Positions 12,868-34,696 of a DNA stretch of 64,000 nucleotides are shown here, in pieces. The DNA lies in assembly GCA_001586195.1 (NCBI GenBank), contig CP014609.1, positions 3,842,501-3,906,500 of the forward strand, in the 5' to 3' direction. The DNA comes from Solibacillus silvestris (GTDB lineage: Bacteria; Bacillota; Bacilli; Bacillales_A; Planococcaceae). Below the pieces are notes generated by a model. The model worked only from the letters and a program-made list of their open reading frames with translations. It was not told the DNA's origin and ran no database searches. Both the position numbers and the translations under genes were made by a program. The stretch's first letter is position 1. Every line of letters begins with the position of its first letter.

Positions 12868-13815
12868 ATGAGTCAAATAGACAAAGAATTCATCTTAGTT
12901 TATGGAGATGCATTCGTTGATTATATTGCAAATGATCAGACCAATACTTCATTTACGAAGTATTTAGGTGGCGCAACAATCAATGTTGCAGCAGGGATTA
13001 GTCGTATTGGGGCACCGTCAGCACTTATTACAATTACAGGCGATGATGAAACTTCGGAATTTTGCCGTCAGGAGATCGCAAAAGAAGGTGTGAATCTTGA
13101 TTTCGCTGTATTTGATGCGAAGAAGCGTGTAAGTGGTGTATATGTGCATTTAACTGAAAAATGTGAGCGAGTATTTAAAGATTATGTCGATGAGACGCCG
13201 AATTTACAAGTAACACCTGAGCAGTTACAGGAAGAAGCATTCAAACGTGCTTCCGTTTTAAATGTTTGTTCAGGAACGATGTTTGAAGAAACCGCATTAA
13301 AAACAACACGTGCTGCAGTGGATATGGCCAAAGATAAAGGAGCGATTATCGCAATCGATGCGAATATCCGCCCGCTTCGATGGGAATCCGAGGAAATTTG
13401 CCGTGAGACGATTACTTCATTTTTTGAAGATGCCGATATTTTAAAGCTTACCGATGAGGAATTATATTTCCTGACAGAAACAACAACAATTGAAGAAGGC
13501 CTCCAAAAGTTGGATGAGCTGTTAGTACCGATCGTGTTAATTACAGTTGGAGCTGATGGAGCATATGCTGTATTAAACGGTGAAGTAACACATGTTCCGG
13601 TTGAACAGGTAGTCCCTGTAGATACAACAGGTGCCGGTGATGCATTTATGGCAGGCGTACTCCGTTATGTTCATTTCAATGGTTTACCTACAGTAACAGA
13701 AGATTTAATCAGCTGTGTCGCATTCGGCAACAAGCTGGGAGCAATGGCTGCTACTAAAGCAGGTGCGTTAACGGCGCTGCCAAGCTTCGAGGAAATTAAG
13801 CATTTAATTAAATAA
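12868..13815 (+). CDS. PfkB-family carbohydrate kinase, fructokinase-like
   Basis: The 315-residue ribokinase-fold enzyme has the glycine-rich substrate site GGATINVAAGISRIGAPS (about 34-51) and PfkB signature 2 DTTGAGDAFMAGVL (about 252-265), where Asp258 is the catalytic base. It phosphorylates a sugar such as fructose with ATP in the cytoplasm. Start from CGGAGG. No sugar transporter or glycosidase adjoins it, so the substrate is not defined; fructokinase is the closest general match. Confidence 0.88.
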   Translation: MSQIDKEFILVYGDAFVDYIANDQTNTSFTKYLGGATINVAAGISRIGAPSALITITGDDETSEFCRQEIAKEGVNLDFAVFDAKKRVSGVYVHLTEKCERVFKDYVDETPNLQVTPEQLQEEAFKRASVLNVCSGTMFEETALKTTRAAVDMAKDKGAIIAIDANIRPLRWESEEICRETITSFFEDADILKLTDEELYFLTETTTIEEGLQKLDELLVPIVLITVGADGAYAVLNGEVTHVPVEQVVPVDTTGAGDAFMAGVLRYVHFNGLPTVTEDLISCVAFGNKLGAMAATKAGALTALPSFEEIKHLIK

Positions 13816-13832: not shown

Positions 13833-13873
13833 CTGTCTCCGAAGTGTTTTTACATTTTGGAGGCAGTTTTTTG
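13833..13873 (+). terminator. Terminator after the PfkB kinase
   Basis: CTGTCTCC pairs with GGAGGCAG (one wobble), followed by TTTTTT. Confidence 0.8.
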
Positions 13874-13897: not shown

Positions 13898-14215
13898 TAT
13901 TAGAAGAGTGAAGCCGTTTATTAGAAGAAGTTAGATGGTTATTAGAACAACGGGTGGTGTTATTAGAAAATGAGGGGGAATTCCGAGTGACAAGGTCTTC
14001 GTTTAAACATGAATAGAGGAGAAGGAAGGGCGTTTTAATTTTTATTAGAACAATGGTACGAGATATTAGAAGAAGTAGGAACGATATTAGAAAATACCTT
14101 AGCGATATTTGAACAATTCATCCGGATATTCGAACAATGAAAGGTTATATTAGAAAATCGCGATTTTATTAGAAACAAATAAAAATATATTAGAACTTCC
14201 CCCATTTTATTAGAA
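13898..14215 (+). repeat. Phased array 1: 13 copies of TATTAGAA at about 21-bp period
   Basis: Cores TATTAGAA (two variants TATTTGAA, TATTCGAA) begin at 13898, 13919, 13940, 13961, then 14043, 14064, 14085, 14106, 14127, 14148, 14167, 14188 and 14208. Steps are 21, 21, 21, 82, 21, 21, 21, 21, 21, 19, 21 and 20. The bases between cores are unrelated from unit to unit, except that A/T precedes the core and AA often follows. The 82-base interruption has no clear copy. The array lies after the kinase terminator and before the XRE regulator and is not open for translation in any continuous frame on the plus strand. It fills this 530-base gap; function unknown. Confidence 0.92.
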
Positions 14216-14345
14216 TATCCTGCCTCCACAATCCTAGCCACCACCGCCAAACGAAACCATCAGTTGACAAAATCTATATTTCGAAAGAATTAGTCGCTAT
14301 TAATCAGCCAAAGTTCTTTTATAATAAGAATAAGAGGTGAGGGGG

Positions 14346-15452
14346 ATGACCAACTTTCAATTTGCGGCCATTTTTACAGAGCGCCGTAAACAATTACAAG
14401 TGACACAAGAGGAAATTGCGCGGCATGTCGGGGTATCAAGGGCAGCTGTTTCGAAATGGGAGAAGGGGCAAAGCTATCCGGATATCGCACTATTGCCGAA
14501 GCTTGCAACATTTTTCAATATTTCAATTGATGCACTGCTCGGTTATGAGCCTCAATTGACGAATGAACGGATTTTGAAAATGTATGCGGAATTAGCAAAG
14601 CGCTTTTCAAAGGAACCATTTGCTGAAGTGGACGCAACAATTGATCAACTCATTGAAGAATATTATAGTTGTTTCCCGTTTTTACTGAAGATGGCGCAGC
14701 TTTACGTCAATTACTTTAATCTTGCACAGAATAAAGAAGCCGCTGCGGACAAAATACAGGAACTCTGTAAACGTGTAAAGGAGTTCAGCGGAAATTACCG
14801 GCTGAAAAACGAGGCGAATTTACTCGAGGCGTATACGTATATTTTAAGAGGAGAACCTCAGCATGTACTCGAATTATTAGGAGAAGATGCTGTAGTTCAG
14901 CTTGGGACTGAACAGCTTATCGCTACGGCACAAACGATGCTGGGCAATATAGAAAAGGCGAAGGAAATTCACCAGGTCAACATGTACCAGCATTTGCTGT
15001 ATATGATTACAAATGCGAATGAAGCACTTGGATTGGAAATAGGAAATGTATCTTATTTTGAACAGTCGGTCAGCCGGATTGAAACGATAATAGACACTTT
15101 TCATTTAAATAAACTGAATATACACAACACACTGCTGTTTTATATAAAGGCAGCGAGCGGATATGCAACACAAAATAATATAGAAGAAGCAATTCGCTGT
15201 ATTGAGCGCTATGTAAAAATTTGTACGCAAATCAAATTTCCATTTCAAATTACAGGGGATGATTATTTCTACTTGCTGGATGGCTGGATCGCAAAGGAAG
15301 TTATACTGAGCACGCAAACACCACGTGATGAAGAAACAATCAAAAAATCAATTTATGAAAGCATTGCCCAAAACCCGATGTTGGCAAGTGTGCAAAACGA
15401 TACGCGCTATAAAAGTTTACTTGTCAATTTAAAACATCATTTAAAAATTTAA
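14346..15452 (+). CDS. XRE-type transcriptional regulator with helical (TPR-like) C-terminal region
   Basis: Residues about 7-60 form a Cro/C1-type helix-turn-helix (RRKQLQVTQEEIARHVGVSR split: TQEEIARHVGVSRAAVSKWE is the recognition part). The remaining ~300 residues are alpha-helical and resemble TPR-containing regulators that control neighbouring ABC exporters. The total is 368 residues from ATG 14346, which has AGAGGTG 8 bases upstream; a GTG at 14337 would overlap that site. TATAAT at 14320-14325 may be the -10 box. A PLDc_N protein and ABC exporter follow within 12 bases, so it probably controls that operon. Confidence 0.85.
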   Translation: MTNFQFAAIFTERRKQLQVTQEEIARHVGVSRAAVSKWEKGQSYPDIALLPKLATFFNISIDALLGYEPQLTNERILKMYAELAKRFSKEPFAEVDATIDQLIEEYYSCFPFLLKMAQLYVNYFNLAQNKEAAADKIQELCKRVKEFSGNYRLKNEANLLEAYTYILRGEPQHVLELLGEDAVVQLGTEQLIATAQTMLGNIEKAKEIHQVNMYQHLLYMITNANEALGLEIGNVSYFEQSVSRIETIIDTFHLNKLNIHNTLLFYIKAASGYATQNNIEEAIRCIERYVKICTQIKFPFQITGDDYFYLLDGWIAKEVILSTQTPRDEETIKKSIYESIAQNPMLASVQNDTRYKSLLVNLKHHLKI

Positions 15453-33227: not shown

Positions 33228-34046
33228 TTGAAAAAGTTATTGAAATTAATCCTTTTTATAGGTGTTGTCTATCTATTTTTATATATAAATAATAATTGGC
33301 TTGTCACAACCGATTATGTACATGAATCAGAGAAAATTCCGGAGAGCTTTGATGGCTATCGGATTGCCCAAGTAACCGATCTGCATGATGCGACATTTGG
33401 GGAAAATCAATCGCGATTAGTGAAAAAAGTGCGGGCTACCAAACCGGATGCTATTTTCATAACGGGCGATTTAGTTGATAGTCGCCGCTATGACTTGGAA
33501 AACAGCTTGCAGGCTGTGCGTCAGTTAGTCGATATTGCGGATGTTTACTATGTTCTGGGCAACCACGAAGTTGCATTGAATTTAACAGATGAAATTTATG
33601 CGGCTTTAAATGAGCTGGGCGTCCATGTGTTACCGAATGATGCGGTACAGTTGGAGCGCAATGGAGAGCACATTGTCATTGCGGGTATTGAGGACCCGTT
33701 AATGGGGAAAGAAGTGGGACAGTCGATCGATGAAGCACTGTACAATATGAATCCAGATGCATTTAAAGTGCTATTGTCACACCGTCCTGAGGTGTTTGAA
33801 ACATATGTTGAAAAGGACATTGACCTAGTGTTAACAGGGCATGCACATGGTGGTCAAATTCGTCTGCCATTTATCGGCGGACTTTTTGCGCCAACTCAAG
33901 GTTTCATGCCAACATACACAGCGGGTATTTATGAACAGCAGGACACGGAAATGATAGTAAATAGGGGGTTGGGGAACAGCCTGTTTCCTTACCGAATCTT
34001 TAATCTGCCTGAAATTTACGTGGTTGAGTTGAAAAGGAAAGACTAA
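33228..34046 (+). CDS. Membrane-anchored calcineurin-like metallophosphoesterase
   Basis: After one N-terminal membrane helix (about 4-22), the 272-residue protein shows all metallophosphoesterase blocks: DLH (VTDLHDATFG, about 48), GDLVD, GNHE, SHRPE and GHAHGGQ. Metal-binding residues are intact. YkuE/YaeI-like relatives act on the outer face of the membrane, some on UDP-diacylglucosamine-type or lipid substrates; the substrate here is unknown. Start TTG with a weak ribosome site. Confidence 0.88.
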   Translation: MKKLLKLILFIGVVYLFLYINNNWLVTTDYVHESEKIPESFDGYRIAQVTDLHDATFGENQSRLVKKVRATKPDAIFITGDLVDSRRYDLENSLQAVRQLVDIADVYYVLGNHEVALNLTDEIYAALNELGVHVLPNDAVQLERNGEHIVIAGIEDPLMGKEVGQSIDEALYNMNPDAFKVLLSHRPEVFETYVEKDIDLVLTGHAHGGQIRLPFIGGLFAPTQGFMPTYTAGIYEQQDTEMIVNRGLGNSLFPYRIFNLPEIYVVELKRKD

Positions 34047-34055
34047 TTAGTAGTT

Positions 34056-34247
34056 TTCTAATATATGCTGCAGGTTTTCTAATAAAGTCGAATAAGTTCT
34101 AATATAATGTGAGTGTTCTAATAAATTATTAAGAAGTTCTAAAATAGGCACTTGTTCTTCTAATAACCTGGTGAACTTTTCAAATAAAGTATTCCCTTGT
34201 TCTAATAATCTGTAAAAAGTTCTAATATATTTCCAAACCTTCAATAA
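34056..34247 (-). repeat. Phased array 2: 10 copies of TATTAGAA (minus strand) at 19-21-bp period
   Basis: On the plus strand, TTCTAATA or close variants begin at 34056, 34077, 34097, 34116, 34137 (TTCTAAAA), 34158, 34179 (TTCAAATA), 34200, 34220 and 34240 (TTCAATAA). Steps are 21, 20, 19, 21, 21, 21, 21, 20 and 20. The core equals that of array 1 but in the opposite orientation. Spacers are unrelated. It starts 10 bases after the phosphoesterase stop and fills the gap before the rhodanese gene. Confidence 0.9.
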
Positions 34248-34339
34248 AGGACGGCATTCCCGTTCTTAAAGCGCAAAATATTCGTAAGCTTAGGCAGATT
34301 ATCGTAAAATAAGTGAAAACAGATCTTAGGAGTATGCAA

Positions 34340-34696
34340 ATGGAAGGGATTATTACACTACTTGCAATGGTGGGGATCATTGTAATGATCGTGCGTTTTA
34401 TGCCGAAAAAAGGCGTGAAATATATGACGACAAAAGAACTGCAGCCTTTACTGGATGATAAGAAATATGTATTTGTGGATGTCCGTACGGAAAAGGAATA
34501 TAAAGAGGCTCATATTCCACAGTTTATTAATCGTCCGCTTGGAACGTATTTAGGAGATTTGCCGAAAGATCGACCAATTGTTGTCATTTGTCAAAGCGGT
34601 GCACGCAGTAATAAAGCGTGCAAGGAACTCGTAAAGCTCGGTTATACCGATATAACAAACATTCGTCGCGGGATGAATGGACTGCGTGCAGAATAA
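34340..34696 (+). CDS. Membrane-anchored rhodanese-like sulfurtransferase
   Basis: The 118-residue protein has one N-terminal membrane helix (about 3-22) and a single rhodanese domain (about 32-118). The active-site loop CQSGARS near residue 85 contains the catalytic cysteine that would carry persulfide sulfur. DVRTEKEYKEAHIP is the usual CH2A region. Start ATG 34340 with AGGAG 7 bases upstream; a GTG at 34313 lies before that site. Partner unknown. Confidence 0.9.
   Translation: MEGIITLLAMVGIIVMIVRFMPKKGVKYMTTKELQPLLDDKKYVFVDVRTEKEYKEAHIPQFINRPLGTYLGDLPKDRPIVVICQSGARSNKACKELVKLGYTDITNIRRGMNGLRAE

What the first reader, a model, noticed from the sequence alone, without database searches (positions are those of the whole stretch)
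13898..14215. Helically phased array of 13 TATTAGAA cores with unrelated spacers
Thirteen cores, 11 of them identical 8-mers, are set at 21-bp steps (21,21,21,82,21,21,21,21,21,19,21,20). 21 bp is two turns of B-DNA, so all cores face one side of the helix. The 13 bases between cores differ completely. Simple slippage followed by drift would erode core and spacer alike; retention of core and phase alone suggests selection, such as an array for a DNA-binding protein or nucleoid factor, or an unknown copying mechanism. The host gap lies just after a terminator.
Basis: seen in the sequence. Interest (0 to 1): 0.85.

Follow-up and report, generated by a model that had tools for sequence, protein, structure and literature searches.

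The report
Chromosome-wide helix-phased TATTAGAA arrays
Behind many genes of this soil bacterium's chromosome lie strings of the same eight DNA letters, spaced so that the copies face one side of the double helix; they look like landing strips for a DNA-binding protein that has not been identified.

Summary
The array is exactly as described. It belongs to a family of about 57 loci in this Solibacillus chromosome (merged by hand), including a second array in the window at 34056-34227.

Eight of 16 genus genomes are rich in it. Ureibacillus carries a different layout. The Solibacillus layout is a grammar: (21,21,21,L)n then 21x5,19,20,20/21, with L near 61, 71, 81-82 or 91-92.

Within groups of orthologous loci, L differences of 3 bp or more are 10-12 bp in 8 of 9 cases, about one helical turn (p=0.002). 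The best all-pairs period is 10.3 bp. Orthologous cores differ at 0.049 of sites, spacers at 0.247, right flanks at 0.228.

Arrays lie at gene 3' ends, usually behind a terminator-like hairpin, and rarely in divergent gaps. Tests for coding, internal pairing, curvature and phage or plasmid matches were negative.

Best reading: double-stranded platforms for an unidentified sequence-specific protein that binds one helix face every two turns. Protein and function are inferred. Nine searches of an open-access library listed no description of the family.

The parts
13898..14215 (+). The array of the finding: 13 cores, long form (head module plus tail module)
   Evidence: tail found by model R1 at 14043-14215 (105.9 bits) and head at 13898-13977 (36 bits)
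13898..14042 (+). Head module: four cores at 21,21,21 followed by the 82-bp linker that has no exact core
   Evidence: linker length 82/82/71/71/81/82 in six species at this locus
14043..14215 (+). Tail module: nine cores at 21,21,21,21,21,19,21,20 (two variants TATTTGAA, TATTCGAA)
13833..13872 (+). Terminator-like hairpin (CTGTCTCC/GGAGGCAG) and T-run of the upstream kinase gene, about 25 bp before the first core
   Evidence: read by eye
12868..13815 (+). Upstream gene, PfkB-type sugar kinase; orthologue in 16 of 16 genus genomes
14337..15452 (+). Downstream gene, XRE-type helix-turn-helix protein
34056..34227 (-). Second array of the same family, short form: nine slots at 20,21,21,21,21,19,20,21, seven of them exact cores
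34313..34696 (+). Rhodanese-domain gene on one side of the second array
33228..34046 (+). Metallophosphoesterase gene on the other side; its 3' end points at the second array

Best explanation
Each array is a double-stranded DNA platform for an unidentified sequence-specific protein that recognises about WTATTAGAANAW. One molecule (or dimer) binds per core; bound molecules line up on one face of the helix every two turns (about 20.5 bp) and probably touch each other, forming a cooperative nucleoprotein filament. Core-free linkers may have different lengths provided the next core stays on the same face (whole turns of about 10.3 bp). The arrays lie behind terminators in gaps that rarely hold two divergent promoters, so the most likely role is an architectural or insulating element at the ends of transcription units. 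Shown: the phase grammar, the quantised linkers, core-specific constraint, vertical inheritance, 3'-end placement. Inferred: the protein, its oligomerisation, and (least certain) the boundary role.
For: Phased pairs 225 against 0 in the reversed control. The same step grammar across 158 arrays, 143 with the tail signature. Best all-pairs period 10.30 bp; linker classes at odd half-multiples of the unit, p=0.005 (n=52) and 0 of 2000 simulations (exact cores, n=21). Linker differences within orthologous groups of 10-12 bp in 8 of 9 cases, p=0.002; without the dominant 79-84 class still R=0.83, p=0.0002, n=14. Cores 0.049, spacers 0.247, right flank 0.228 divergence. T4 and G6 kept in 288 of 288 core slots, T1 and T3 in 287 of 288 (36 modules). 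Arrays occur in either orientation to the flanking genes, which fits a DNA-level rather than a transcript-level role. A second genus uses the same core with linkers of 40 bp (38) or 39 bp (3). 120 of 133 arrays that follow a co-directional gene have a terminator-like hairpin before them, against 13 of 133 shuffled and 10 of 91 in a same-strand control.
Against: No binder was found; only one candidate family (PF01051, iteron-binding initiators) was tested, present in 1 of 16 genomes. No expression, binding or chromatin data exist here. Linker classes are partly inherited, so events are fewer than rows; one variant of the periodicity test gave p=0.71 for cores with up to one mismatch. The fixed tail pattern alone could be common descent of copies. 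Eight of 16 genus genomes manage with 0-3 model matches, so the system is dispensable at genus level. The placement behind terminators could be harmlessness of that site rather than function.
Confidence: 0.6

Rival explanations
1. Relic of a small mobile element (MITE-like) whose cores were transposase-binding sites and which inserted preferentially behind terminators.
For: Many copies share one layout, and spacers of different loci are still 47% identical, so the copies descend from each other. Placement behind terminators looks like a target preference.
Against: Arrays are inherited at fixed loci (31 of 55 groups seen in more than one genome) and cores are still held while spacers drift; a relic should lose cores and spacers alike. 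No match in plasmid or phage collections. Left and right flanks of the same array do not pair better than flanks of different arrays (own better in 28 of 51), so no terminal inverted repeat was seen; target duplications were not searched for.
Confidence: 0.15
2. The arrays act as RNA: a transcript with repeated UAUUAGAA motifs that binds or titrates an RNA-binding protein, or folds.
For: In Solibacillus 133 of 157 arrays are co-directional with the upstream gene, and spacers are G-rich in the first and C-rich in the second half.
Against: No stable fold (z -0.41 and 0.03); half-half pairing no better than with other arrays (own better in 23 of 51); most follow a terminator; in Ureibacillus 12 of 20 arrays have the left gene running the other way; whole-turn linkers make sense on duplex DNA, not on RNA.
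Confidence: 0.08
3. Neutral tandem duplication and drift, with cores kept by chance or by gene conversion.
For: Unit and module gain and loss are visible: G006 lacks units 1-2 and 5-8 of the window array (alignment by eye), and one locus has 13, 39, 26, 27 and 14 cores in five species.
Against: Cores diverge five times more slowly than spacers and flank; slippage or conversion would homogenise spacers too; linker steps of about 10 bp are not multiples of the unit.
Confidence: 0.06
4. Intrinsically curved DNA from phased A/T tracts, without a specific protein.
For: AT-rich cores recur in helical phase.
Against: A wedge model with parameters recalled from memory gives 152 tail modules a contour/end-to-end ratio of 1.078, against 1.097 for base shuffles, 1.083 for spacer shuffles and 1.076 for upstream DNA. 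Curvature would not need G6 and T4 to be invariant.
Confidence: 0.03
5. Protein-coding: 21 bp is seven codons, and the frame xTA TTA GAA reads as coiled-coil heptads ending in a stop inside the last core.
For: One frame has few stops (0.83 per module; 14 of 36 modules without a stop).
Against: Stops are not depleted against column-shuffled controls (0.83 against 0.88, z -0.4; all 120 modules 0.98 against 0.83, z +2.5). The same octamer is kept in three frames within the tail (19- and 20-bp steps), and the 103-bp Ureibacillus cycle shifts frame each time.
Confidence: 0.02

Closest known systems
REP/BIME elements
   Same: Dispersed chromosomal intergenic repeats, often between gene 3' ends, reported to bind DNA gyrase, Pol I and IHF (passages of PMC1525189).
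   Different: REP units are palindromes; here the core is non-palindromic and the modules show no pairing. Helix-quantised linkers are not mentioned in the passages seen.
Iteron arrays of plasmid-type replication origins
   Same: Arrays of specific sites for an initiator protein (passage of PMC5872114); spacing near 19-22 bp and same-face binding are recalled, except the 22-bp DnaA-box-to-iteron spacing in that passage.
   Different: About 57 loci on one chromosome rather than one origin; no Rep_3 family gene in 15 of 16 genus genomes.
bcr-type interspersed repeats of the Bacillus cereus group
   Same: Chromosome-wide intergenic repeats limited to one group of Bacilli (recalled; one search is a listing only).
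   Different: Recalled as longer conserved, folding units; here only short cores are kept and spacers are free.
Dispersed single chromosomal sites (parS, Noc sites, DNA uptake sequences)
   Same: Short sequence repeated across a chromosome and read by a protein (recalled).
   Different: Here the octamer is not enriched outside arrays in the window (5 outside against 4.0 expected) and always seen as a phased series.

Membership tests
REP/BIME | Palindromic, hairpin-forming unit | tested here: not met
   Folds no better than shuffles; half-half pairing own better in 23 of 51
REP/BIME | Intergenic, at gene 3' ends, dispersed | tested here: met
   151 of 158 arrays adjoin a gene 3' end; divergent gaps 3 of 46 against 29 of 135
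REP/BIME | Bound by gyrase, Pol I or IHF | not testable with these tools
   No binding data
Iteron arrays | Direct repeats of one site in helical register | tested here: met
Iteron arrays | Replication origin with cognate initiator gene | tested here: not met
   PF01051 found in 1 of 16 genus genomes, on contig C2 of G014; other initiator families were not tested; loci are spread over the chromosome
MITE or other mobile element | Terminal inverted repeats | tested here: inconclusive
   Flank-flank pairing own better in 28 of 51
MITE or other mobile element | Target-site duplication | not tested
   Empty sites in G003 and G004 were only read by eye
CRISPR array | Long identical repeats with cas genes | tested here: not met
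   Eight-base cores with drifting, orthologous spacers; cas genes were not searched for
Small coiled-coil gene | Open frame kept by selection | tested here: not met
   Stops not depleted against column shuffles
Array of sites for a DNA-binding protein (general) | Short sites constrained and held on one helix face | tested here: met
Array of sites for a DNA-binding protein (general) | Direct evidence of binding | not testable with these tools
   Needs pull-down, footprinting or ChIP

The most novel reading that the evidence does not exclude
A chromosome-wide bacterial chromatin system: a dedicated protein polymerises on dozens of pre-set, helix-phased tracks behind terminators (about 10.3 bp per turn, two-turn pitch, linkers measured in whole turns) and so partitions the chromosome into insulated transcription units, the site grammar being written into the genome.
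Probability: 0.3. Interest if true: 0.92.

Novelty: new variant of a known kind. Interest (0 to 1): 0.8.

Why it matters
It is a natural experiment in which evolution has measured the DNA helix: linkers at the same locus in different species differ by about one turn, so a helix-face constraint can be read from genomes alone. If a filament-forming protein sits on these arrays, dozens of ready-made sites per chromosome, and sister species with few or none, would make the role of such filaments in insulating genes or organising a bacterial chromosome directly testable.

Tried and rejected
Coding heptads: attractive at first, but stops are not depleted. RNA structure: folds, half-half and flank-flank pairing negative; the mcrA Rfam hit (17.8 bits, gathering 57.6, E 0.17) is below threshold. 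Curvature: negative with a recalled wedge model. Regulon: 20 proteins beside arrays scanned with NCBIfam (16 with a match at 1e-20) share no theme. Replication polarity: 30 of 57 own-genome loci co-oriented with replication. Mobile origin: no similar sequence in 72,556 plasmid or 50,697 phage records; five viral contigs with one triple match each were not examined further. Variant-core arrays (TATTBGAA pairs): 51 of 121 family genomes have a match, at most 8 in one genome; no second family stood out. Shared neighbour genes between Ureibacillus and Solibacillus arrays: three queries with distant homologues only (26-35% identity). A pattern was one base too short and found 9 places. One periodicity variant gave p=0.71 (see report). 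A first guess that arrays avoid the middle of the contig was made before the origin was known; with dnaA placed, loci per quarter of origin distance are 15, 26, 11, 5 in the own genome only.

Literature: nine searches, seen as listings; two of them are long and were listed only in part (20 of 448 papers, 10 of 61). Passages only were read of PMC1525189 and PMC5872114. Nothing listed describes these arrays; most subscription papers are not in the library.

In a first attempt to hand in this report several fields were jumbled and the curvature rival's 0.03 stood under the best explanation; the odds given now are those intended.

Full report
Observation. The window holds 13 cores at the stated places and steps, 11 exact. 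TATTAGAA occurs 23 times in the window against 4.0 expected; 18 are in two arrays, the second on the minus strand at 34056-34227, and 5 are elsewhere, which is background. In the whole genome (3.99 Mb, one contig) the spaced pair gives 225 matches and the backward control 0.

What it belongs to. A sequence-only model of the last nine cores (R1, from ten own copies) finds 81 matches at E<=0.001 in the own genome, which I merged by hand into 57 loci. In 16 genomes of the genus, 8 have 34-110 matches and 8 have 0-3. In 250 family genomes the spaced pair is frequent in those 8 (61-410), sparse in G001, G002 and G013 (11-13), and frequent in two genomes of genus g11 (125 and 44), which I take to be the Ureibacillus species; elsewhere it is 0-3. 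In the scan of 84,980 species the triple pattern recurs on several contigs in Solibacillus (merdavium, faecavium, palustris) and Ureibacillus (manganicus, acetophenoni). Other taxa give single matches, except one Odoribacteraceae contig (6), one Acidobacteria contig (2), one Nitrospira contig (2 stretches) and one Treponema MAG (2 contigs) (records near the window's genome may be left out there).

Grammar. From 151 loci (the window, 50 own-genome stretches, and 100 stretches mostly around the best-scoring listed hits of seven relatives, so a sample biased to clean copies) I extracted 158 arrays with at least three exact cores. Of these, 143 contain the tail signature. They read (21,21,21,L)n then 21,21,21,21,21,19,20,20 or 21, with exceptions visible in the list. 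Consecutive distances, cores with up to one mismatch: 19 (157), 20 (312), 21 (1104), then clusters at 30-31 (9), 39-42 (34), 50-52 (9), 59-61 (13), 69-73 (29), 80-82 (82), 90-92 (9); between them 22-29 (8), 32-38 (9), 43-49 (7), 53-58 (5), 62-68 (1), 74-79 (1), 83-89 (3). The 20 Ureibacillus loci carry variations of (21,21,21,40)n; the linker is 40 bp in 38 cases and 39 in 3. In Solibacillus 80-82-bp linkers (n=20, one per group and class) the middle carries a conserved TT (offset 41-42 from the left core) where a core would have its own TT, so the linker looks like two 40-bp steps over one worn core.

Helix phase. The best period of all pair distances is 10.30 bp. Linker lengths fall also at odd half-multiples of the 21-bp unit, which unit gain and loss cannot produce: windows around those classes give p=0.005 (n=52, up to one mismatch) and 0 of 2000 simulations (n=21, exact cores). 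A variant that cut out windows around multiples of 20.5 gave p=0.0020 for exact cores but p=0.71 for cores with up to one mismatch; the lengths it allows are themselves periodic, so I give it no weight either way. For linkers just before the tail (n=96), one value per class and group, without the dominant 79-84 class: n=14, R=0.83, p=0.0002. Within groups of orthologous arrays (23 with at least two genomes), adjacent distinct lengths that differ by 3 bp or more do so by 10,10,18,11,10,12,12,10,10; 8 of 9 fall in 9-12 or 19-22, p=0.002 against an even spread over 3-21. Nineteen smaller differences (1-2 bp) were left out of that test. These are distinct lengths, not events counted on a tree. The window locus itself has 82, 82, 71, 71, 81 and 82 bp in six species.

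Constraint and descent. Flanking genes place the 158 arrays in 55 groups, 31 of them seen in more than one genome; arrays are inherited at fixed places. In 225 orthologous tail pairs (29 groups) cores differ at 0.049 (707 of 14,400) and spacers at 0.247 (5552 of 22,500) of sites; the 60 bp to the right differ at 0.228 of aligned sites with 12% unaligned. Ten pairs under 60% identity were dropped and the last core was not counted. Between loci of one genome the values are 0.107 and 0.534. In 36 modules (one per group, chosen with at most 3 mismatches per core) T4 and G6 are kept in 288 of 288 slots and T1 and T3 in 287; W before and A two bases after the core are also favoured. At the window locus G006 lacks units 1-2 and 5-8, and G003 and G004 have no array (by eye). 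The gap behind enolase carries an array in the own genome (L124) and in S. palustris (L100, enolase there recognised by eye), whose cores and spacers equal those listed for array-poor G001.

Surroundings. 133 of 157 arrays with both neighbours seen follow a gene read in the same direction (40 of 54 groups). Of these 133, 120 have a terminator-like hairpin plus T-run before the first core (median 34 bp to the core), against 13 of 133 after shuffling and 10 of 91 in a same-strand control; by group 33 of 40. The scan is my own simple one. 151 of 158 arrays adjoin a gene 3' end; 7 of 157 lie in divergent gaps. In the own genome 3 of 46 array gaps are divergent against 29 of 135 other gaps, p=0.014. 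In Ureibacillus 12 of 20 arrays have a left gene running against the array, and 1 of 20 is in a divergent gap. Neighbour proteins have no common function.

What it is not, as far as tested. Not coding, no RNA fold or pairing, not curved by a wedge model with recalled parameters, no match in the plasmid and phage collections, no replication-strand bias with dnaA at 3.709 Mb as origin (30 of 57).

Mechanism. Retention of short, non-palindromic sites with nearly invariant bases, on one helix face, in either orientation to genes, is what a cooperative sequence-specific DNA-binding protein would leave (inference). The 21-bp runs overshoot two turns of 10.3 bp by about 0.4 bp per step, and the 19/20 steps and the 40/81-bp linkers take this back, so modules close near whole turns: 63+L, and by arithmetic 103 and 164 bp. 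Placement behind terminators suggests an architectural or insulating role between transcription units (inference). The binder is unknown; PF01051 was the only candidate family tested.

Comparison and novelty. It works somewhat like iterons (phased direct sites) and lies where REP/BIME elements lie, but a defining feature of each was tested and not met: no Rep_3 initiator in 15 of 16 genomes, no palindrome or pairing. Searches of the open-access library listed no description of these arrays. I file it as a new variant of dispersed intergenic elements, with the possibility of something new in kind stated as the novel case.

Noticed in passing
13898-14215 and other arrays: Strand asymmetry: spacers are G-rich (G 0.29-0.38, C 0.09-0.17) in head modules and tail slots 1-3 and C-rich from slot 4 on; the flanks follow (G 0.28/C 0.13 before, G 0.15/C 0.25 after). 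Unexplained.
   Followed up: partly
14106-14113: Slot 4 of the tail often carries TATTTGAA (T at position 5 in 14 of 36 modules), as in the window; slot-specific variants may mark a weaker or different site.
   Followed up: no
Own genome, G000:C1: With dnaA at 3.709 Mb the 57 loci fall 15, 26, 11, 5 into quarters of origin distance: fewer near the presumed terminus.
   Followed up: partly
L041 and orthologues (group 106): Whole-array tandem duplication: 13 cores in the own genome, 39, 26 and 27 in G014, G010 and G009.
   Followed up: no
L098, L104, L108 (Ureibacillus manganicus): Nearly identical 103-bp macro-repeats in long arrays, apparently recent amplification.
   Followed up: no
L055:4493-4857 (Odoribacteraceae MAG): Six matches of the triple pattern at exact 63-bp intervals; possibly a coding repeat, since 63 is divisible by 3.
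   Followed up: no
L063:1717-1829 (Solibacillus palustris): A six-core array between an ArsR-type gene (recognised by eye) and a divergent gene, one of the few arrays kept in the array-poor relatives.
   Followed up: partly
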